This document shows positions 14,726 through 23,918 of a stretch of DNA of 64,000 nucleotides, piece by piece. The notes beneath the pieces are model-generated. The model ran no database searches and was not told where the DNA came from. It saw nothing but the letters and a program-made list of their open reading frames with translations. Source of the DNA: Paenibacillus sp. (lineage in GTDB: Bacteria; Bacillota; Bacilli; Paenibacillales; Paenibacillaceae); contig JAFWEX010000129.1 of assembly GCA_017512705.1 (NCBI GenBank), positions 1 to 64,000 on the forward strand, read 5' to 3'. Within the stretch, counting starts at the first letter, position 1, and every line of letters begins with the position of its first letter. The translations under genes and the position numbers were made by a program.

Positions 14726-15364
14726 ATGTCGAAGGAAGAGCGCAATATTACCTGGCAAACATCGAGTTTAAGCAGACAGGATCGAGAGAGATTCAACGGG
14801 CATCCCAGCCGCACAGTATGGTTTACAGGTTTATCCGGGGCGGGTAAGTCATCTATTGCTTTTGCGCTGGAGAGTTATTTGTCTGAACAAGGTGTTCGTT
14901 GTTATGTGCTTGATGGTGATAATGTACGTCATGGGTTGAATCGTGATCTTGGGTTTACTTCGTCGGATCGGCAAGAAAATCTGCGGCGCATTGGAGAAGT
15001 GTCCAAGTTGATGGTCGACGCTGGGCTGCTTGTACTCTCGGCGTTTATCTCTCCTCATGAAGAAGACCGGGAGATGGTTAAGCAACTATTCGAACCAGAA
15101 GATTTCATCGAAATCTATGTGCGTTGTTCTATTGAGGAATGTGAGCGACGTGATCCGAAAGGACTCTACAAAAAGGCACGCAATGGTGAGATCCCTCACT
15201 TTACAGGAATCTCCGCCCCTTATGACATACCGAAGTCCCCTTCACTCATCATCGATACAGAGCAATATAACATTTCTGAAGCTGTTCAACAGATCGTGGA
15301 CCACCTGCAACACATCGGTGCTTTACGTCTTCCTTTACAGACCGGTTCTGCCCTGACATATTAG
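14726..15364 (+). CDS. cysC: Adenylylsulfate (APS) kinase CysC
   Basis: Makes PAPS from APS and ATP, the activated sulfate used for assimilation and by sulfotransferases. The 212-residue protein has the P-loop GLSGAGKS (residues 35-42), the [10 protein letters not shown] motif, the [18 protein letters not shown] motif, and [10 protein letters not shown], all typical of CysC. It is not next to other sulfate-assimilation genes. Instead it sits alone, convergent with the lasso-peptide operon, which contains a sulfotransferase that would need PAPS. A functional link is inference from that placement. Confidence 0.95.
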
Positions 15365-15410: not shown

Positions 15411-15440
15411 AAAAGGCGTCCCTTTGCGGTACGCCTTTCT
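15411..15440. terminator. Bidirectional terminator between cysC and the lasso operon
   Basis: Stem AAAAGGCGT / ACGCCTTT with T-rich sequence on both strands, between the convergent cysC and exporter genes. Confidence 0.75.
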
Positions 15441-15505: not shown

Positions 15506-17347
15506 CTATTGCCCTGCTGCACCTGCCTGCATATGAAGCAGCTTGCTAAACGTCCCAGATGAGTCGGATGATAACTGCTGATATCCACCCTCTTGAATGA
15601 CACGCCCTTCTTCCAGAACGATGACACGATCTGCGGTTCGAATGGTAGATAATCGATGCGCAATGACAATAATAGTGATGTGTCCTTTCAGTCGTTCGAG
15701 CGCTTCATGAATGTGCTGTTCATTTTCACTGTCCAGTGCACTTGTTGCTTCATCCAATACCAGCACGGAAGGATTGCGAAGCATGGTCCGGGCTAGCACC
15801 AGACGCTGACGCTCACCGCCAGAAAGACGTATGCCCCGATCGCCGATGATCGTATCCAGACCTTGAGGAAGCCTCTGTACAAATGAGGCCGAAGAAGAAA
15901 ACTGAAGTGCCCGCCACATCTGTTCCTCACTTGCATCAGGGTCAACCAGCCGCAAATTTTCACGAATACTTGTATGAAACAAAAAGGGATCTTGCGACAC
16001 GTATCCGATAGAACTACGCCAATGTAGTAACAGCTCCTCTGATAAGGGTTCTCCATCGATCAAGATCCGTCCGCTCTCAGGCTTTATTAGGCCCATAATC
16101 AAATCAATTAATGTGCTTTTACCTGCCCCTGATTTACCAACAATTGCTGTCATCCCTCGAGCTGGAATCGATGATTGCACGTTCTTCAATGCGTAGGTGT
16201 CACTGTCTTCATAACGAAAATATACATTCTCACAGGTGATGGCTTCCACTGGATCAATTGGAACGATGTGTGGAGCAGTGGGCGCACCTCTTCTCGGTTC
16301 TAGTTCTCGGTCAATTGAGAATTCTTCATTGATCTCACGGCTCTTCTCCGTCTGCAATTGTAGCTCTCTCACCATCCGAAATGCAGGCAGCATCGAGCTT
16401 ATGTACTCCAGATTGGATTGAATGGCGGTAAACCTCGGCCATAATCGTGAAAAAATTAATATAATCAGTAACAGACTTGCTGGAGGCACAGACATCACCT
16501 GTAGAGATAGATAAATAAACGTCGCAATAATCAATGCAGCTGACACCCTATGAATGAGCTGTGTACCCGTATTTAGCTGACTAAACTGCACCACATTATG
16601 TTCAATCTGTCTGCACAAGCGCTCAAACCAGCGGATATGGGAATGTTCAAGCATATTACTTTTGATATCTTTGATTCCGTTAAAATGCTCGGTAATGCCG
16701 TTATAATAATGTTGTGAATATTCGGAAGTCTGATCTCCAATCTGTTTGGCGCGTCTAACAAACTTGCGCAGGAGGATAAATAACAACACACCACAGATCA
16801 GCACAAGTGCTGTTAATCTGGCAGATAACCAGAAAGCAAGACCGATCTGAATTGCTGTAAAAATCAGTGAGGCCACCGTCTGCAGAATGAGATTGGTTCC
16901 CTGACTTACTCGGGCAAGTTCAGTCGTTAATATATGATTAAAATCGGATTTTCGTTTTTGGAGAAAAAAAGACCACTGCGCTTTAAGGATCGCACTATAG
17001 GTTTCCATACGCAGCGTTCGTATGAATTGCTGCTGAATACGGGTATTACGGATCGTCTGGAGACGTTGCATCCACGCCTGTCCAGAGAGGATGAATACAA
17101 AGGCGAACAGAACAAGCATTAATTGACTGTTTTCTGAGAATTGGCGGAGTATAGAGCTTAACCAAGTTAGATGTAGACCTGTCGATCCCATCTCAAAAAC
17201 ACCGATTAAGCTCAGCATCGGAACAAGCATATAGATACCGATTCCTTCCATTAGACCAATCGAGATCATAGCCAGCAGATTCCAGTATAAAATGGGCCCA
17301 GAGACATGATGCAGTTTTCGCATAAAGTATTTCAATTCTGAGATCAT
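15506..17347 (-). CDS. Lasso peptide exporter, ABC transporter with fused membrane and ATPase domains
   Basis: A 613-residue half-transporter: membrane domain in about residues 15-330 (several hydrophobic helices) and ATPase domain in about 365-600. The latter has Walker A GKSGAGKST, Q-loop YVSQDPFLF, signature LSGGERQRL, Walker B SVLVLDEATSAL and H-loop IAHRLST. It is the last gene of the lasso operon (D protein) and overlaps the nucleotidyltransferase gene by four bases. In related clusters it exports the mature peptide and protects the producer. There is no N-terminal C39 peptidase domain, consistent with leader removal by B1/B2. Confidence 0.93.
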   Translation of the reverse strand: MISELKYFMRKLHHVSGPILYWNLLAMISIGLMEGIGIYMLVPMLSLIGVFEMGSTGLHLTWLSSILRQFSENSQLMLVLFAFVFILSGQAWMQRLQTIRNTRIQQQFIRTLRMETYSAILKAQWSFFLQKRKSDFNHILTTELARVSQGTNLILQTVASLIFTAIQIGLAFWLSARLTALVLICGVLLFILLRKFVRRAKQIGDQTSEYSQHYYNGITEHFNGIKDIKSNMLEHSHIRWFERLCRQIEHNVVQFSQLNTGTQLIHRVSAALIIATFIYLSLQVMSVPPASLLLIILIFSRLWPRFTAIQSNLEYISSMLPAFRMVRELQLQTEKSREINEEFSIDRELEPRRGAPTAPHIVPIDPVEAITCENVYFRYEDSDTYALKNVQSSIPARGMTAIVGKSGAGKSTLIDLIMGLIKPESGRILIDGEPLSEELLLHWRSSIGYVSQDPFLFHTSIRENLRLVDPDASEEQMWRALQFSSSASFVQRLPQGLDTIIGDRGIRLSGGERQRLVLARTMLRNPSVLVLDEATSALDSENEQHIHEALERLKGHITIIVIAHRLSTIRTADRVIVLEEGRVIQEGGYQQLSSDSSGTFSKLLHMQAGAAGQ

Positions 17348-18540
17348 ACTTTTCCCCTCTCTGTCATCGTGCTTTTTTTGAAGCGCCGCCAGAACCAGAG
17401 AAACGGACGTAACGGGAAATATAGAAAATACAGAGAACGGGGAAGCGGCAGTTGATGCACGTCCCAGGTACTCGGATATAAACGCTCAATAAAGAAAAAC
17501 CATTTCTGTCTAGCACTTCGAAGAGAAAACAAATACGATTGATAATTCGGCAACTCTGCTGGACTATCCAGCATGTCATTCATAAACAGCGCACCTGCTC
17601 TCGCTAATCGCTGACCAGCACGGTTACTCATAGCCATAATGGAGAGGTAATCGTCACTCAGCGGCGTATGCAGCAAGTCCGAAGCAAGATGCAATGTCTG
17701 GGAACCAATGGATAAACGTCCCTCTGCTTTCAGACGTCGCTCGACCTTTTTCGTATCCAGTGGCATCGTACGAATCATCTGATCCATGTCCAGTAGCCAC
17801 CGTAGTCTGAACCATCCATGCCTTGCACCATGGGTCACTAAATACACCCATAGATCCTCTCTTTCGAGCATACGTACAGGTGTCTGGGTATATGAGCTGA
17901 AGCGACTGCGTTTCCATAGAAGCTCGAAGTCTGTTTCCCGGCCGGAGTCGGGATTCAATCGCCAATGGATCTCCACTTGAGTCCGTTTCTCGGGATGAAT
18001 ATAACAAATATGATGCTCTCGCCACTTCCAGCTGCGAACGGTAAGCGATCTCTCGCCCTCCTTGCACTGGTAACCAAGCCCGATGAGAATACGTTCTGCT
18101 GCCTCGACCTCTTGGACTGGAATCAAAATATCCAGATCTTTGGAGGTTCGCATAGAAACATCACCGTACAGGTCATGCGCCAGAGCAGGCCCTTTCAGTG
18201 TAATCGTGCGGATTCCCCGTTCGCGAAACGCTCCGCAGACTTGCTCCATTTCAGCTGTGAGTTGCAACATACGAAACGTGTTGATCGTATACTGCTGTTT
18301 CAGGCTCTCCATTACCGTTTGGGGAACAGACGGAAGGTTCATCTGTTTTAACCTCACATAGATGACCGAATACAGACGATGGTGGTACACAAGCTGTACA
18401 AAAAGCGGCCAATCCATATCGTCCAGCCGGCTCGTCATCTCCTTAGAAGTTAGATCCGTCAGATCATCTCTAAGCAGGCTCAAGATTAGCTTAAGCTCCT
18501 TCGGAAACCTTGTAGAATACAGTTCAGTTTCATGCGTCAT
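17344..18540 (-). CDS. Lasso-cluster nucleotidyltransferase family protein (PsmN type)
   Basis: A 398-residue protein of the NTP_transf_5 type. The pol-beta-like core is visible in ITLKGPALAHDLYG and RTSKDLDILI, with the metal-binding Asp pair at about 135 and 137, and an EIHWRLNP segment follows. From what I recall, a homologue in the pseudomycoidin cluster (PsmN) is needed to add a sugar to the phosphorylated C-terminal residue, so a similar role after the kinase here is plausible. ATG at 18540 follows GGAGAG; a TTG at 18546 is the alternative. The gene overlaps both neighbours (B2 and exporter), so it is clearly part of the operon. Confidence 0.88.
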   Translation of the reverse strand: MTHETELYSTRFPKELKLILSLLRDDLTDLTSKEMTSRLDDMDWPLFVQLVYHHRLYSVIYVRLKQMNLPSVPQTVMESLKQQYTINTFRMLQLTAEMEQVCGAFRERGIRTITLKGPALAHDLYGDVSMRTSKDLDILIPVQEVEAAERILIGLGYQCKEGERSLTVRSWKWREHHICYIHPEKRTQVEIHWRLNPDSGRETDFELLWKRSRFSSYTQTPVRMLEREDLWVYLVTHGARHGWFRLRWLLDMDQMIRTMPLDTKKVERRLKAEGRLSIGSQTLHLASDLLHTPLSDDYLSIMAMSNRAGQRLARAGALFMNDMLDSPAELPNYQSYLFSLRSARQKWFFFIERLYPSTWDVHQLPLPRSLYFLYFPLRPFLWFWRRFKKSTMTERGKV

Positions 18541-19012
18541 AGACAATCTCTCCAGATCCCTTCTCAGGACACCCTTTACCGAACACGCCGACGACCGTAT
18601 ATTGATCCATCGTATCTGCTCCAGTTACGATCAGCTTGCCACTTCGTAGCCAGGCATGTGCCATCAGTTGTCCCTGCTTATTCCGTGCCGTGCCCATATA
18701 TAACGTACTTGCGATATGACGACGCTCCAACATTTTCATCGCAGCTATAGCCATGACAAGACATTGACTTTCCCATAACGTATATTTGCTGGCAAGCATA
18801 ACTGCTTTTGAGATATTTCTGATCTCCACCACTTGAGTTCGATTCAAACCAGTCATAGGTGTTTCAACCATAGGCGTTCCGAGTCCCGGAGCAATCTTGG
18901 CAAACGACCTTGCCTTCTGAATTCGTGCCCATCCCAGCAGGATGTAAGCTTCCCACACCAATCTCCTTACCGGAGCTGGAAGCGAGAAATACGCCTTTAT
19001 TTTCCGAAACAT
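18530..19012 (-). CDS. Lasso peptide leader peptidase B2
   Basis: Transglutaminase-fold cysteine protease that cleaves the leader from the lasso precursor. The 160-residue protein has the catalytic Cys in LWESQCLVMAIAA, the His in LMAHAWLR and the Asp in VTGAD. This is the arrangement of stand-alone B2 proteins, where the recognition domain is a separate B1. Four bases separate it from B1 and its end overlaps the nucleotidyltransferase gene. Confidence 0.93.
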   Translation of the reverse strand: MFRKIKAYFSLPAPVRRLVWEAYILLGWARIQKARSFAKIAPGLGTPMVETPMTGLNRTQVVEIRNISKAVMLASKYTLWESQCLVMAIAAMKMLERRHIASTLYMGTARNKQGQLMAHAWLRSGKLIVTGADTMDQYTVVGVFGKGCPEKGSGEIVYDA

Positions 19013-19016
19013 CTTC

Positions 19017-19316
19017 CTACACTCCGCGGGAAATATCGATTAATCCTTCACGTGAGAGGTGCTCTAAAAATGGCACAACCTGTTCACGGCATTGCTCCGG
19101 TTGGATATCGTATTCTACAGCAAGCGCCTCAATCAATTCGTCCAGCTTCCGCTGCTCTGCGATGAGTTCCCAGATGCGTCCACCGGTGCTCCCCAAATTG
19201 TAATATTTACCGGAGGCAATGCTCATCATCACCTTCTCGCCGCCCATATCACTAACCAGATTACCTTCCTTCCGTGATATCACGTCATTCGCATGGATGG
19301 GTGTAATAGCTGTCAT
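19017..19316 (-). CDS. Lasso peptide B1 protein, PqqD-like recognition element
   Basis: A 99-residue PqqD-fold protein (RiPP recognition element) that binds the precursor leader and presents it to B2 and the cyclase. Visible pattern: GEKVMMSIASGKYYNLGSTG, then IWELI, then a C-terminal helical part (VVPFLEHLSREGLI). Its start overlaps the kinase stop by four bases. Confidence 0.93.
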   Translation of the reverse strand: MTAITPIHANDVISRKEGNLVSDMGGEKVMMSIASGKYYNLGSTGGRIWELIAEQRKLDELIEALAVEYDIQPEQCREQVVPFLEHLSREGLIDISRGV

Positions 19317-20260
19317 ATTCCTACTTGCACTCCTTTGCGTATATGATTGATGATTCGTTCCACCATCTCAAATGCTGTAAAGTCCTGCCCTGTTCTACTG
19401 ATCCTGCTGATCTCCACACTAGCCGAGAGTTTGGATACCGTTTCGAATAACCATTGGGCAAGTCCCTGGCGTGTCACCAGTCCACCACGAAAGGTATGTG
19501 AGCACAGCACGTGAAGACGTTCGAGACCGATAACCTCTTCCAGATGAACCGATCCCGATCCGTGATCTGGCCGGGGCACAAGCTCATAGATTCCAGCTAA
19601 GGGCACAGCTCTCTCGTGAAAATAGTGTTGAACGGGAATGGCATATTTCGTGATTTCAGCGTGCACCGTGGCGTAGTTCTGTTGCTCCATACCAAAACCG
19701 TCCAGACTGGGCTGCCATAATTTCTGCTGTGGATATCCCGGTGACACGATGGCTCTTCCTCCGGCATCCCAAGTCAAGGCCACCACATCATCGGTGAGAA
19801 GAGGATATCCGCGGGATGCGAGCGCTGCAGATAATGTAGACTTTCCTGCGCCAGAATGCCCGACGAACGCGTAAGCCCTTTGATCAATAACTACTGCACT
19901 CCCGTGCAGTGGAAGAATGCCACGCTGCATCATAATCACGGACATACATGTCCCGAGGATAAACAGTCTTACTTTTTTCGGATCAGCTTCGGATATTGGA
20001 GAAACTACGATTCGTTGACCCTGTTCCATTAAAAATAATCCTGTATCTTCGATTCTGAAAAAAAGACAACCGTCCCGCGCTACAAAGTTGTCGTCGCCAA
20101 CATCCCAGCTCTTCCACAGTCCCGTCAGATCGAAAGTTTCGATCCGTACATCAACTGCACCCTGCTCCGTTTCGGCATCCAGAGGTGCACTCTGCAACTC
20201 GGGCATCGGGATCTGACTCAACCAGCGCAAACCGTAAGCTTCATAGTGCACAGGCAACAA
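19313..20260 (-). CDS. Lasso precursor kinase, HPr-kinase-like (PadeK type)
   Basis: Relative of HPr serine kinase. The 315-residue protein carries LPLHGSAVV and the P-loop GHSGAGKST (about 134-142), followed by LLTDDVVAL, the acidic motif of this fold. In the paeninodin cluster the homologous kinase phosphorylates the C-terminal Ser of the precursor; the precursor here also ends in Ser. The start is TTG at 20260, eight bases after GAAGGAGG, with no in-frame ATG nearby. It lies downstream of the attenuator-like structure at 20290-20364, so its expression relative to the precursor may be adjustable. Confidence 0.92.
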   Translation of the reverse strand: MLPVHYEAYGLRWLSQIPMPELQSAPLDAETEQGAVDVRIETFDLTGLWKSWDVGDDNFVARDGCLFFRIEDTGLFLMEQGQRIVVSPISEADPKKVRLFILGTCMSVIMMQRGILPLHGSAVVIDQRAYAFVGHSGAGKSTLSAALASRGYPLLTDDVVALTWDAGGRAIVSPGYPQQKLWQPSLDGFGMEQQNYATVHAEITKYAIPVQHYFHERAVPLAGIYELVPRPDHGSGSVHLEEVIGLERLHVLCSHTFRGGLVTRQGLAQWLFETVSKLSASVEISRISRTGQDFTAFEMVERIINHIRKGVQVGI

Positions 20261-20289
20261 TAAGGGGGCCTCCTTCGTTTTTAGATATG

Positions 20290-20327
20290 AAAAAAAGCCC
20301 TGATATTCATTTGCTCAATATTAGGGC
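20290..20327 (-). terminator. Terminator/attenuator between precursor and kinase genes
   Basis: Read on the minus strand: GCCCTAATATT (20317-20327), loop of nine bases, AATATCAGGGC (20297-20307), then a run of T (20290-20296). The 11-bp stem has one G-U pair. It would end most transcripts after the lasso precursor gene. A second hairpin (20323-20364) shares its 5' arm. Confidence 0.85.
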
Positions 20328-20364
20328 GGAGGCGAAAAAGCTGAGATGTCTGCATTTCCGCCCT
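20323..20364 (-). promoter_or_regulatory. Alternative hairpin overlapping the attenuator
   Basis: AGGGCGGA (minus strand, 20357-20364) pairs perfectly with TCCGCCCT (20323-20330) around a 26-base loop. Bases 20323-20327 also belong to the terminator stem, so the two hairpins cannot form fully at once. This is the form of an antiterminator/terminator pair; the trigger is unknown. Confidence 0.6.
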
Positions 20365-20397
20365 TTAAGTATGGACATGCTTGGAATATGAACTGAA

Positions 20398-20535
20398 TTA
20401 AGACGTTGGATCGTACATATCGGCATCGTGTGCAGTAATCCAGTCGATTTGTCTGTACCCAACCCCTGCCATTGTTTCATTCACATCCAACACTTCAAGT
20501 ACAGGTGCTTGCCATTCCTTTTTTTCGTTTTGCAT
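20398..20535 (-). CDS. Lasso peptide precursor (paeninodin type), 45 residues
   Basis: ATG at 20535 follows AAAGGGGGTG; stop TAA at 20398-20400. The leader is MQNEKKEWQAPVLEVLDVNE plus TM, with the leader Trp-x-x-Pro element and the Thr two residues before the cut that B1/B2 systems use. The predicted core is AGVGYRQIDW then ITAHDADMYDPTS: 23 residues with Ala1, Asp9 for a nine-residue macrolactam ring, and C-terminal Ser23. This matches paeninodin in core length, ring size and final Ser. Tyr19 is flanked by Asp15, Asp17 and Asp20. The gene lies between the cyclase and kinase genes and is followed by its own terminator. Confidence 0.92.
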   Translation of the reverse strand: MQNEKKEWQAPVLEVLDVNETMAGVGYRQIDWITAHDADMYDPTS

Positions 20536-20571
20536 TGTTTTCACCCCCTTTCATATGAGCTCTGCCGCAGG

Positions 20572-22503
20572 TTAAAATTTCTGAATAAAACGGTACACAA
20601 TCAAACTGTGCATCATTAAGCGCAAATCCGGGTGTGACGCCAGTTCGGGCTTAGGACTCGGAAAATTAGCCAAGGCCGTTCTAATGCGATCCGTGTTTAA
20701 TATGCCGGCAACCCGGCTGTCAGAACACAAGGCCTGCATCTCTGAGGTAAATGCTTGCCAGTCAGGCAAAATACGATGCAGCCAGTCCGCAGGCTGTACG
20801 CCCCGAACACGCTGGTTCAGCCTTACCTTATCGGGCAATTCCGGTGAAGTAGCTCGACGAATCAGAGATCGATCCGTGCCGTGTCTGACATACTGCTCAA
20901 TCGGTACAGAGAGACAAAATCGGATGACTCTTGGATCACTCGTCGGGTCACGTTCCCATACCCGATAGCGAAGAGAACATTTTGTAGCGACAGCCCCATT
21001 CTTATTGGCAATCGCCAAATTGTTGAACTTGTCAGCTCGTACCTGAAGGGCATCGGCTCGTGCTCCACCCTGCAAGACCAGAATAGATTTGAGTCGCTCC
21101 ATTACCCCTGTTCTTTGGGCTAATTCAGGATGAATTAATTGTGCGCCTGCAGGCTGTACTGTCGCCTTGTTGTTCCCTTTAAACCAATCAGGGAAGGCTT
21201 TACGTCCTGTGATGCGGGCAATTCGTGAAAATGCCATTCCTGTGCGCTCGCTGTACTGCTGCATCTCGCGGAACCAGCGGAAATACCTTCCGCTTTTCAG
21301 CAAACTGGCATAATAGTCCAGCGCAGGTCCCCACGAGATCGTAAAATTACCACGGGCGCCTGTGAGCAAAATACCTGCATCCTGTTCACTCGCTCTCTCA
21401 TAGAATCCGCGGATCCAGAATGAATTTTCAAAGTATTTATAAGGCATCTCCATCATATTTAGCCATGTATCCACTTCACTGAGCGGGCTGCGCCCTTCGA
21501 AATCCAGATAGTTCTCCGCGATATTGCCTACGTGACTGATCGTCGAACGAATGAATGGCCGCTCGTCAGCAAGTAACGTCTTGGGCGTGTAATCCGTAAA
21601 GTCAGGAACAGGTACATAGCTGTAGGCATGAAGCTGTTTTCCCTGACTACGGAGCGTTCCAGATGCAAAACCGGCAACGGCTCCAGAATCCAATCCACCA
21701 CTTAATGCCGCCGCCACTTGTCTGTGGGTTCGCAGGCGCGAGCCTACAGCTTGACTGAACACATCGCGAAAAGCTTCCACATATTCATCATCCGATTTGA
21801 GCCGAAGCGGTTCGACGTCATCCCAGCGATGATAATGCTTCAGTTCGATCTTCCCGTTTCGAAACGTCAATGTGTGTGCAGATGGAAGCTGATTTACGCC
21901 ACGATAAACCGTGGAATGAATATCTACCGAGTCATGCATATCAGGAATAGCGAGGAATTCGGATAGCCAGCTTTCGTCGAGTGATTTCTGGACACCTTCA
22001 AGCTCAAGCAATGGCTTCATCAACGTACAAAAGGCAAACCGTGAACCATCATGACGGTAGTAAAATGCCCTCATGCCTGTGATATCCCTTGCGGCAAACA
22101 AGGTATGGCGCCGTTCATCCCAGATTGCAAATACAAAATCGCCTAACAGATAACCAGCCACCTGTTCTCCCCAGCGCTGATAAGCCCGTAGAATCAGCTG
22201 ACTGTCTGCCAGCGTAGACAGCTCAGCTTTTGAAATCTGCAACTGATCTGCCAGTTGCTCCCGGTTATCCAGAATGGCATCGGCAGTGATGATTAATCGA
22301 CTATCTTCATCATGTAGAGGCAATTTTTCGTTGACAGACTCTAGCGTAATCCACTGGGCATGGCAGCTAAGGAATGCTTCATCTCCTTTCCACACCCCTG
22401 TTGTATCTGCTGGGATATGTCCAAGGCTTGCGTATAACCGCCAGCTGTCCTCCCATAGCGCCTGCTGACCATCCCTATGTACAATTCCGGCTATGGCACT
22501 CAT
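20572..22503 (-). CDS. Lasso cyclase, asparagine-synthetase-like (LasC)
   Basis: ATP-dependent macrolactam synthetase that activates the Asp9 side chain and joins it to the core N-terminus. The 643-residue protein starts MSAIAGI at the ATG at 22503 (GAGGAGG upstream), has an N-terminal glutaminase-like domain (about 1-200) and a synthetase domain with the AMP-binding loop SGGLDS (about 268-273). The residue after Met is Ser, not the Cys nucleophile of true asparagine synthetases, as expected for a cyclase that uses no glutamine. It overlaps the upstream sulfotransferase gene by four bases (ATGA). Lying before rather than after the precursor gene is unlike the A-C-K-B1-B2-D order of paeninodin. 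Confidence 0.94.
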   Translation of the reverse strand: MSAIAGIVHRDGQQALWEDSWRLYASLGHIPADTTGVWKGDEAFLSCHAQWITLESVNEKLPLHDEDSRLIITADAILDNREQLADQLQISKAELSTLADSQLILRAYQRWGEQVAGYLLGDFVFAIWDERRHTLFAARDITGMRAFYYRHDGSRFAFCTLMKPLLELEGVQKSLDESWLSEFLAIPDMHDSVDIHSTVYRGVNQLPSAHTLTFRNGKIELKHYHRWDDVEPLRLKSDDEYVEAFRDVFSQAVGSRLRTHRQVAAALSGGLDSGAVAGFASGTLRSQGKQLHAYSYVPVPDFTDYTPKTLLADERPFIRSTISHVGNIAENYLDFEGRSPLSEVDTWLNMMEMPYKYFENSFWIRGFYERASEQDAGILLTGARGNFTISWGPALDYYASLLKSGRYFRWFREMQQYSERTGMAFSRIARITGRKAFPDWFKGNNKATVQPAGAQLIHPELAQRTGVMERLKSILVLQGGARADALQVRADKFNNLAIANKNGAVATKCSLRYRVWERDPTSDPRVIRFCLSVPIEQYVRHGTDRSLIRRATSPELPDKVRLNQRVRGVQPADWLHRILPDWQAFTSEMQALCSDSRVAGILNTDRIRTALANFPSPKPELASHPDLRLMMHSLIVYRFIQKF

Positions 22504-23852
22504 TTCTTTCCTCCTCGAACGATTTTGCGTTGAGATGCCCATGCGCTGATTTGATGACCGAATGGTATCCATGATTTGATCCGCTTCAGTTTACTTTGGA
22601 CGGAATCAAGTTGCTTCTTCAAACGCTCTCGTTCCGAATACCCTCGTTCCAGCCGCTGATCCGCTGCCCGAAGAGCTGCCCGCAACTGCCTGATCGTAGC
22701 CATCGCTGCTAGTGTGGGGTCGATCTTTGCAGCTTCCTGGCTATCTGGACTACTCTGAAGTGAAGAACGATTCTCCACGCCATCTATTGGCGCTCTTAGT
22801 CGATAGTTCGGCTGCCAACGACATTCTGTTGCCGCCGTCAGCTGCTGCTGAAGCCGCTCCAGCACTTCCTGATCTGGCTCAGCTTGGAACTGGACTCCTG
22901 TCCATCGTTCGGCTTCTTGCAGCTGTTCACCGTATCCCATACGTTCGAACAGATCGGCTCCCAAGACACGACAATACAATTCAACCTCTTGCCGATCTAG
23001 TATGTTTTTCCAGTTGTTAACAGAATCCTGGTGGGGTTCCTGATGTGATGAAAGGAAAGGATCCCCGACACCCATACTGTAGAACATGTCAGCTTTCGTA
23101 CTATGAACAAACTGTCCATACTGCTCCATACCTTGTTCATAAGAAAGTCCTAGGAAGCCACATAACTTCTCCATTTCCTCCTGTGGTTTCATAACCAGCT
23201 GCTCATACTTGAGTTCATATGCAAGTGGATGAGGCTCTGCGAAATAATCATTTAGACGAGTTAAGCCTAACGTCAGATCAATAGCTTTCATATGGAGCTT
23301 CGGATGATTCAGACTCTGAATGAGATCAAAACTTTCACCGGTATGGCGATCTACTTTTTTAAAGGATGCCGCTATAGAAAGGGGATTACGCTGAAGATGA
23401 ATGCGTCTGGACTGCGGAAACAACCGATCCAGCCATTCAAGCATATAATAATAACGCGGAGATTTATCTACGATGAAGTCTGCTCCGCTCCCTTCCAGGA
23501 ATCCATTGTATATTTCAAGAGCAAAGCTTCTACATGCCTTTTCGAAAACATCTTCGGACACCATCGCTTGATAAAATTGACGGATGATAGAACTACCACC
23601 GTAAGCGCGAGAGTCAGCCTTGGACAAATCAACGAGATTCATCAGAAACCACATCTCTTGTGTAGCGAATATACGACTATGGTTTTGCAGCATAACGGTG
23701 GATAACGAACTGCCACTGCGGGGGATGCATAATAATAAGACAAGTCCGTTTCCTTGCGTATCTATCAATGGCAGCCTCTCCTCTGTATATTTATAAGAAT
23801 AATGTGGGATCGGATCGACCGGAGTAACATGGGCCTGCATATGACAGGTCAT
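22500..23852 (-). CDS. Sulfotransferase family protein, first gene of the lasso operon
   Basis: A 450-residue protein with a PAPS-dependent sulfotransferase domain in about residues 35-310: the 5'-phosphosulfate loop IPRSGSSLS (43-51) and the 3'-phosphate motif HLQRNPLSIAASF (152-164). The form is that of PF13469, which also includes tyrosylprotein sulfotransferases. The last 90 residues are a charged, probably coiled-coil tail (about 380-430) of unknown role. The gene overlaps the cyclase by four bases and is the first gene after the operator-bearing promoter, so it belongs to the cluster. Predicted action is sulfation of the lasso peptide, possibly at Tyr19 or Tyr5; not proven. The ribosome site is weak, and ATG at 23840 is an alternative start. 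Confidence 0.85.
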   Translation of the reverse strand: MTCHMQAHVTPVDPIPHYSYKYTEERLPLIDTQGNGLVLLLCIPRSGSSLSTVMLQNHSRIFATQEMWFLMNLVDLSKADSRAYGGSSIIRQFYQAMVSEDVFEKACRSFALEIYNGFLEGSGADFIVDKSPRYYYMLEWLDRLFPQSRRIHLQRNPLSIAASFKKVDRHTGESFDLIQSLNHPKLHMKAIDLTLGLTRLNDYFAEPHPLAYELKYEQLVMKPQEEMEKLCGFLGLSYEQGMEQYGQFVHSTKADMFYSMGVGDPFLSSHQEPHQDSVNNWKNILDRQEVELYCRVLGADLFERMGYGEQLQEAERWTGVQFQAEPDQEVLERLQQQLTAATECRWQPNYRLRAPIDGVENRSSLQSSPDSQEAAKIDPTLAAMATIRQLRAALRAADQRLERGYSERERLKKQLDSVQSKLKRIKSWIPFGHQISAWASQRKIVRGGKK

Positions 23853-23865
23853 TTCGACACTCTAA

Positions 23866-23880
23866 GATACAATATGTATT
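23866..23880. promoter_or_regulatory. Lasso operon operator O2
   Basis: GATACAATATGTATT, arms ATACA/TGTAT with a three-base centre. It lies just downstream of the predicted -10 and shares the ATACANNNTGTAT pattern with O1. The centres are 31 bp apart, close to three helical turns. Confidence 0.6.
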
Positions 23881-23889
23881 TATACCTTT

Positions 23890-23918
23890 ACTCTATGATA
23901 CAAAATGTATCATGTCAA
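23890..23918 (-). promoter_or_regulatory. Promoter of the lasso peptide operon
   Basis: Minus strand: consensus -35 TTGACA (23913-23918), 17-base spacer, -10 TAGAGT (23890-23895). The whole spacer is the palindrome of operator O1. Predicted transcript start near 23883, about 30 bases before the sulfotransferase ATG. Confidence 0.75.
23896..23912. promoter_or_regulatory. Lasso operon operator O1
   Basis: Perfect palindrome TGATACAAAATGTATCA (7-3-7) filling exactly the spacer between -35 and -10. A protein bound here would exclude RNA polymerase. I do not recognise the regulator family and no regulator gene lies in the cluster. Confidence 0.75.

What the first reader, a model, noticed from the sequence alone, without database searches (positions are those of the whole stretch)
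15506..23852. Lasso peptide operon with three candidate tailoring enzymes: sulfotransferase, kinase and nucleotidyltransferase
Seen: eight tightly packed or overlapping genes encode a sulfotransferase, cyclase, precursor, HPr-kinase-like kinase, B1, B2, nucleotidyltransferase and exporter. Known: paeninodin-type clusters carry the kinase, and pseudomycoidin-type clusters carry kinase plus nucleotidyltransferase acting on the C-terminal residue. Inference: adding a sulfotransferase would give a peptide both phosphorylated/glycosylated and sulfated. I know of no characterised sulfated lasso peptide. The gene order (cyclase before precursor) also differs from paeninodin.
Basis: partly seen in the sequence, partly recalled or inferred. 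Interest (0 to 1): 0.93.

Follow-up and report, generated by a model that had tools for sequence, protein, structure and literature searches.

The report
Lasso peptide cluster with sulfation kit
A Paenibacillus gene cluster predicted to make a knotted 'lasso' peptide begins with a sulfotransferase gene and lies beside the only gene found in that draft genome for making the enzyme's sulfate donor, so the peptide is likely sulfated as well as phosphorylated, a decoration that we found reported for no lasso peptide.

Summary
Corrections: the sulfotransferase most likely starts at TTG 23771, and cyclase-before-precursor is the normal paeninodin order. It is the only cysC found in this draft genome, whose sat-cysH pair lies elsewhere without one. 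The sulfotransferase matches in 103 of 394 family genomes (one a remnant), all 103 with a cysC, against 158 of the 291 others. All 107 loci examined are lasso loci. cysC adjoins 83 of 105 assessable ones, against 1 of 38 lasso loci without the sulfotransferase. The model's best fold matches are tyrosylprotein sulfotransferases, and the residues expected for PAPS binding and catalysis are invariant. Best reading: a lasso peptide sulfated on a core hydroxyl. Ser/Thr12 (65 of 65 distinct cores) is preferred over Tyr19 (54 of 65), but genomes that lost the sulfotransferase keep Ser/Thr12, so the site is open. Sulfotransferase genes in Firmicute lasso clusters were already noted in print. Added here: PAPS-kinase link, distribution, site predictions. 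No product was measured.

The parts
22500..23771 (-).
20572..22503 (-). Lasso cyclase (asparagine-synthase-like, C); ATG overlaps the sulfotransferase stop (ATGA)
20398..20544 (-). PadeA-family precursor, GTG start; predicted core AGVGYRQIDWITAHDADMYDPTS
20401..20469 (-). Predicted 23-residue core; ring Ala1-Asp9; candidate sulfation sites Thr12 (20434-20436) and Tyr19 (20413-20415); C-terminal Ser23 is the predicted kinase site
   Evidence: sequence
19313..20260 (-). HprK-related kinase (K), start TTG; holds His...GKS...Asp-Asp elements
   Evidence: motif named
19017..19316 (-). B1 (PqqD-like leader-binding protein)
18530..19012 (-). B2 leader peptidase (transglutaminase-like)
17344..18546 (-). 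Nucleotidyltransferase N (PF14907, PsmN-like)
15506..17347 (-). ABC exporter D
14726..15364 (+). cysC, APS kinase (makes PAPS, the sulfate donor); only copy found in this draft genome; convergent with the exporter
23890..23918 (-). Promoter-like TTGACA-N17-TAGAGT holding the inverted repeat TGATACATTTTGTATCA; pattern found before 65 of 107 sulfotransferase genes, 0 of 38 control cyclases
15413..15437. Inverted repeat AAGGCGT...ACGCCTT between the convergent exporter and cysC stops, likely shared terminator (read by eye; its loop is too long for the scan, which does not list it)
   Evidence: sequence printed

Best explanation
The operon encodes a paeninodin-family lasso peptide pathway whose sulfotransferase is predicted to put a sulfate ester on a hydroxyl of the core peptide, most likely Ser/Thr12 just outside the ring, using PAPS likely made by the APS kinase encoded next door. 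Shown by sequence: the genes, their conserved order, the invariant residues expected for PAPS binding, the cysC linkage and the conserved core motif D9-x-[VIM]-[ST]12-x-x-D15-x-D17. Inferred: sat makes APS, CysC makes PAPS, the sulfotransferase acts on the linear precursor (as the paeninodin kinase does), K phosphorylates the C-terminal Ser, N decorates that phosphate, B1/B2 remove the leader, C closes the Ala1-Asp9 ring and D exports the product. Given a sulfated peptide, I put about 50% on Ser/Thr12, 30% on Tyr19, 20% elsewhere (sugar or C-terminal Ser).
Against: No product measured. Genomes that lost the sulfotransferase keep S/T12 (18 of 18 precursors in the 7 genomes looked at) and Tyr19 (17 of 18; Phe in G086), so S/T12 may be kept for the fold or another reason. 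Four of those genomes also keep a cysC 8-10 kb past the cyclase. On the tree only 3 supported independent contrasts exist: cysC and S/T12 each go with the sulfotransferase in about 2 of 3, against it in 0, which cannot reach significance. cysC is not in the stretch read at 22 of 105 sulfotransferase loci. The closest fold, TPST, would favour Tyr.
Confidence: 0.68

Rival explanations
1. Tyrosine sulfation: the enzyme is a bacterial tyrosylprotein-sulfotransferase-like enzyme that sulfates Tyr19, which sits in an acidic stretch (DADMYDPTS).
Against: Tyr19 was lost at least 6 times on the cyclase tree while the sulfotransferase stayed; in L140 (Val19) and L127 (Gly19) the parsed core has no Tyr at all, yet the enzyme is intact. 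By sequence the family scores nearer NoeE (136.3 bits) and CurM ST (98.4 bits) than TPST (41-44 bits); the first two act on aliphatic hydroxyls (recalled).
Confidence: 0.22
2. Sugar sulfation: N adds a hexose to the phosphorylated C-terminal Ser and the NoeE-like sulfotransferase sulfates that sugar.
For: N is in 104 of 107 sulfotransferase loci but 19 of 38 control loci (its duplicate L224 left out); best curated match is NoeE, a sugar sulfotransferase (recalled).
Against: L146 keeps the sulfotransferase with N reduced to fragments, and L157 has no N in the stretch fetched (the third locus without N, L121, is cut by its contig end). Does not explain the core motif peculiar to these clusters.
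Confidence: 0.08
3. The sulfotransferase is not a peptide-tailoring enzyme: it serves sulfur or surface-polymer metabolism, or is inactive, and its place in the cluster is inherited by descent.
For: Few gains or losses on the tree (4 changes, 3 forced by supported branches); genomes of two genus groups (g1, g17) lost it while keeping the lasso genes; cluster genes N, B1, B2 and D also occur beside sugar-nucleotide genes in L173.
Against: Invariant active-site residues across 107 loci, ATGA overlap with the cyclase gene, genome-wide co-occurrence with cysC.
Confidence: 0.1

Closest known systems
Paeninodin cluster (C A K B1 B2 D; Paenibacillus dendritiformis)
   Same: Precursor family NF033524, split B1/B2, HprK-like kinase, C-terminal Ser, cyclase-first order
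   Different: Locus L218, whose core I recall as paeninodin's (AGPGTSTPDAFQPDPDEDVHYDS), shows no sulfotransferase, N or cysC in the 19 kb read, and another core motif
Pseudomycoidin cluster (kinase PsmK + nucleotidyltransferase PsmN; Bacillus pseudomycoides)
   Same: Kinase plus nucleotidyltransferase; one or two hexoses on the phosphorylated Ser reported (PMC9266682 passages)
   Different: No sulfotransferase or cysC mentioned in the passages seen
Firmicute lasso clusters with a sulfotransferase noted by Zhu et al. 2016 and PMC4289311
   Same: Same combination: sulfotransferase at the start of the cluster, N between B2 and D (review PMC8498205, passages); a sulfotransferase in some clusters (PMC4289311, one passage). 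Very probably the same kind of cluster.
   Different: Only mentioned in the passages seen: no function, no PAPS-kinase link, no acceptor. Zhu 2016 itself is not held
Sulfatyrotides: RaxX with tyrosine sulfotransferase RaxST (Xanthomonas)
   Same: Ribosomal bacterial peptide class defined by tyrosine sulfation (class named in PMC9484694, passage; RaxX/RaxST details recalled)
   Different: Not lasso; Tyr acceptor; not compared by sequence here
NoeE, CurM sulfotransferase domain, tyrosylprotein sulfotransferases
   Same: Family and fold matches with the same PAPS-site pattern
   Different: 28-29% identity to rhizobial NoeE-type proteins over two thirds of the length; 17-24% to the best solved structures; the model's long C-terminal helix (351-400) lies outside those matches

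Membership tests
Paeninodin-family lasso cluster | PadeA-family precursor with Thr at -2, 9-residue ring to Asp, C-terminal Ser | tested here: met
   NF033524 64.7 bits over cut-off 27; ETM-AGVGYRQID...S by sequence; ring size is predicted
Paeninodin-family lasso cluster | Gene set and order C A K B1 B2 D | tested here: met
   order from PMC5067487
Paeninodin-family lasso cluster | Threaded lasso topology of the product | not testable with these tools
   needs the molecule
Pseudomycoidin-type (K + N) cluster | PF14907 nucleotidyltransferase with kinase | tested here: met
   206.1 bits over cut-off 31.2
Pseudomycoidin-type (K + N) cluster | Hexose on the phosphorylated Ser | not testable with these tools
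   needs the molecule
PAPS-dependent sulfotransferase (Sulfotransfer_3) | 5'-phosphosulfate loop PRSGSS and 3'-phosphate Arg/Ser (roles recalled) | tested here: met
   R17, S18, G19, S21, R127, S135 in 107 of 107; S20 in 106; PF13469 90.8 bits over cut-off 27
Tyrosylprotein sulfotransferase (works like) | TPST fold with Arg/Glu/Lys catalytic residues (roles recalled) | tested here: met
Tyrosylprotein sulfotransferase / sulfatyrotide (member) | Tyr as acceptor, hence conserved in substrates | tested here: inconclusive
   Tyr19 in 54 of 65 distinct cores; absent in L140 and L127 with intact enzyme
NoeE equivalog | Score over NCBIfam cut-off 500 bits | tested here: not met
   136.3 bits
APS kinase (CysC) | Full-length APS_kinase domain over cut-off | tested here: met
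   PF01583 224 bits over 21.1; apsK 254.2 bits over 138.7

The most novel reading that the evidence does not exclude
A widespread Paenibacillaceae class of O-sulfated lasso peptides: the linear precursor is sulfated on Ser/Thr12, an aliphatic hydroxyl rather than the usual tyrosine, the C-terminal Ser is phosphorylated and capped, and the cluster travels with its own PAPS kinase, so that one small knotted peptide bears both sulfate and phosphate esters.
Probability: 0.33. Interest if true: 0.82.

Novelty: new variant of a known kind. Interest (0 to 1): 0.62.

Why it matters
If true, it adds sulfation to the known lasso-peptide decorations, perhaps on Ser/Thr, and gives a bacterial enzyme that sulfates a gene-encoded peptide, which would be useful for engineering. 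It makes an open remark in the field (sulfotransferase genes of unknown role in Firmicute lasso clusters) directly testable: three genes (sulfotransferase, precursor, cysC), two candidate residues and exact masses. It also shows the combination to be common: a match in 103 of the 394 family genomes searched.

Tried and rejected
Upstream extension of the sulfotransferase (23852-23772): tblastn ran across stops in relatives, so I looked for a conserved small peptide there. One search shows none: the PKFYYDFNKG ending in some relatives looks like the end of another upstream gene, and in the window's own relatives the stretch is not conserved as protein.

Acidic Tyr as a marker: my test (a Tyr after position 9 with two or more Asp/Glu within 4) also rang in 16 of 42 distinct cores without the sulfotransferase, so it does not discriminate. 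Independent-pairs tests on the cyclase tree were too few to be significant. The cyclase tree is FastTree only, with warnings about long branches; the position counts use one core per locus (103 loci).

Fisher tests (p 1e-17, 7e-23, 5e-26) ignore shared descent and are given as descriptions only. PF03567 in the own genome: the control rang nowhere, so no conclusion. A first count of the active-site residues was spoilt by wrong reading frames, a second by four loci with long open frames; one search is the one used. Class-wide search: 18 of 398 genomes at E <= 1e-40, all of this family; a Metabacillus homologue is listed (P0118). The plasmid collection gave only distant hits, 26-29% identity. The other papers opened gave no sulfated lasso peptide in the passages shown.

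Rows dropped: of 110 match rows, 107 loci were read with flanks; left out were G007:C33 (38% identity), G097 (a remnant, read later) and the second fragment of G154. G097 and G154 (gene broken between two frames) are among the 103 genomes with a match; without G097 the genome-wide count is 102 of 102 against 159 of 292. L224 repeats L111. L142 and L143 are two copies in one genome (G307). L121 and L140 are cut by contig ends and left out of the cysC count. L158 and L167 have cysC but no exporter found, so no distance. L144, L114, L116 and L129 gave no parsed primary core. Second precursors of sulfotransferase loci (GGPNG..., 10 distinct) were counted with the 42 cores without a sulfotransferase beside their cyclase. 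The 38 control loci come from 60 loci drawn by hand from the B1 hits printed: 21 of the 60 have no cyclase in the stretch, and 1 (L224) holds the sulfotransferase. L203 (34% cyclase match) is in the 38 but was left out of the pairs test, and L217 is the one control with cysC (2.2 kb past the exporter). Six of the 38 (L221, L222, L223, L225, L226, L227) are second lasso loci of genomes that have the sulfotransferase elsewhere.
Full report
OBSERVATION. The eight-gene operon is present as described. Reading along the minus strand: sulfotransferase, cyclase, precursor, kinase, B1, B2, nucleotidyltransferase, exporter. Neighbours overlap or lie a few bases apart, except for 27 bases before and 137 bases after the precursor. 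The sulfotransferase most likely starts at TTG 23771, behind GGAGAGG, where its relatives start; upstream codons are not conserved. Its stop overlaps the cyclase start as ATGA. The kinase has the His, Lys and Asp-Asp elements that a review gives for lasso kinases (PMC9266682 passages), and the precursor ends in Ser. The closest named relative fetched is Paenibacillus sp. JJ-100 (97% sulfotransferase identity).

A full-length APS kinase gene, cysC, lies at 14726-15364 on the plus strand and ends 141 bases from the exporter's end. APS kinase makes PAPS, the usual donor of this enzyme family (established knowledge). A search with PF01583 found this one copy in the genome (159 contigs, 94.8% complete). 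ATP sulfurylase and CysH sit together on another contig without cysC. CysH carries CC...CxxC, the iron-sulfur pattern of enzymes that reduce APS directly (recalled; activity not tested). No second PF13469 protein and no PF00685 protein was found. So the likeliest use of PAPS in this cell is this sulfotransferase (inference).

DISTRIBUTION. In 394 family genomes, 103 have a match to the sulfotransferase, one of them (G097) a remnant. All 103 have a cysC by my comparison of the two printed lists, against 158 of the other 291. I read 107 sulfotransferase loci with flanks (and the window) and 60 B1 loci chosen as controls. All 107 are lasso loci; in 105 the next gene found is the cyclase, and in L114 and L116 it is the kinase, with the cyclase further downstream. 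cysC lies beside 83 of 105 assessable ones, 72 convergent and 11 codirectional. Of 81 measurable distances from the exporter's end, 77 are at most 251 bases and the largest is 868. cysC is in the stretch at 1 of 38 cyclase-bearing control loci (L217) and 0 of 21 control loci without a cyclase. Two orientations suggest that the neighbourhood was formed or kept more than once, but related genomes are not independent: only three supported contrasts exist on the cyclase tree.

THE SUBSTRATE. 103 of the 107 loci gave a parsed primary core; 65 are distinct. All 65 have Gly2, Gly4, Asp9, Ser or Thr at 12, and Asp15; 64 have Asp17; 54 have Tyr19. Of 42 distinct cores whose cyclase has no sulfotransferase beside it, 3 have Ser/Thr12, all from L217. 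On the cyclase tree, position 12 changed at least 8 times, always between Ser and Thr, while position 19 changed at least 6 times. L140 and L127 have an intact sulfotransferase and no Tyr in the parsed core. This favours Ser/Thr12 over Tyr19.

RESULTS AGAINST IT. I looked at seven genomes that keep a cluster with this core motif but lack the intact gene. In G097 the gene has an internal deletion, in G091 a remnant is left, and in G086, G376, G378, G381 and G390 none was seen beside the cyclase; PF13469 finds no protein in any of the seven. All 18 of their parsed precursors keep Ser/Thr12; 17 keep Tyr19, and G086 has Phe. G376, G378, G381 and G390 also keep a cysC 8-10 kb past the cyclase. Either the losses are recent, or these residues serve the fold or target. 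The site is therefore open. I put about 50% on Ser/Thr12, 30% on Tyr19 and 20% on other sites, given a sulfated peptide.

SUGAR ALTERNATIVE. N is in 104 of 107 sulfotransferase loci and 19 of 38 controls (its duplicate L224 left out), so sulfation of an N-attached sugar must be considered. L146 (N reduced to fragments) and L157 (no N in the stretch) keep the sulfotransferase, which speaks against a need for N.

MECHANISM (inferred unless marked). sat makes APS; CysC makes PAPS; the sulfotransferase sulfates the linear precursor; K phosphorylates the last Ser (shown for paeninodin, on the precursor and not on the folded peptide: PMC9266682 and PMC8498205 passages); N adds to that phosphate (hexoses seen in vivo for pseudomycoidin, same sources; whether N is itself the glycosyltransferase is left open there); B1/B2 and C cleave and close the ring; D exports. 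A promoter-like element with an inverted repeat stands before the operon in 65 of 107 loci and before none of the 38 control cyclases, which suggests common regulation.

KNOWN OR NEW. A putative sulfotransferase gene at the start of some Firmicute lasso clusters, and N between B2 and D, were noted by Zhu et al. 2016, as told in PMC8498205 (passages); PMC4289311 also noted a sulfotransferase in some lasso clusters (one passage). The 2016 paper and the pseudomycoidin paper are not held. In the listings, and in the passages that I opened, I found no report of a sulfated lasso peptide; others (the phrase 'sulfated lasso'; lasso peptide with adenylylsulfate kinase) returned no paper. Not every listed paper was opened, and the library holds open-licence papers only, so this absence is weak. 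A 2022 review of lasso modifications has no word beginning 'sulfo' or 'sulfat', and a 2026 review shows 'sulfat' only in a reference title.

VERDICT. Observation confirmed and extended; interpretation partly supported. A new variant of paeninodin/pseudomycoidin-type clusters with a predicted, untested sulfation step.

Noticed in passing
23859-23918 (-): TTGACATGATACATTTTGTATCATAGAGT element (promoter-like, with an inverted repeat), followed in the window by a second, degenerate copy (ATACATATTGTATCTTAGAGT); unknown regulator. Pattern found before 65 of 107 sulfotransferase genes, 0 of 38 control cyclases.
   Followed up: partly
L168, L170, L171, L173, L175 and others (21 of 60 control loci): B1-type loci without a cyclase in the stretch read, most with B2, N and exporter; in L173 two sugar-nucleotide epimerase/dehydratase-like genes stand upstream. 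They recall the lasso-neighbour RiPP family of PMC13381572 (passages), but have B2-like hits.
   Followed up: partly
L117, L122, L124, L126, L131, L132 and similar: Double lasso loci: a second cyclase, precursor (GGPNGVFPDKNGKG...HES and alike) and kinase between N and the exporter, apparently sharing B1/B2; the second cores lack Ser/Thr12.
   Followed up: no
L217, L235, L236, L237: Relatives without the sulfotransferase carry 3-4 precursor genes in a row with nearly the same core AGKGWKVIDWVTYDDADLYNP(G)S.
   Followed up: no
L234 (G086): Sulfotransferase gone and Tyr19 replaced by Phe while Ser12 stays: a natural case worth assaying.
   Followed up: no
L230 (G000:C39): cysH-sat pair without cysC; CysH has the CC...CxxC pattern, which suggests APS-type sulfate assimilation.
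   Followed up: partly
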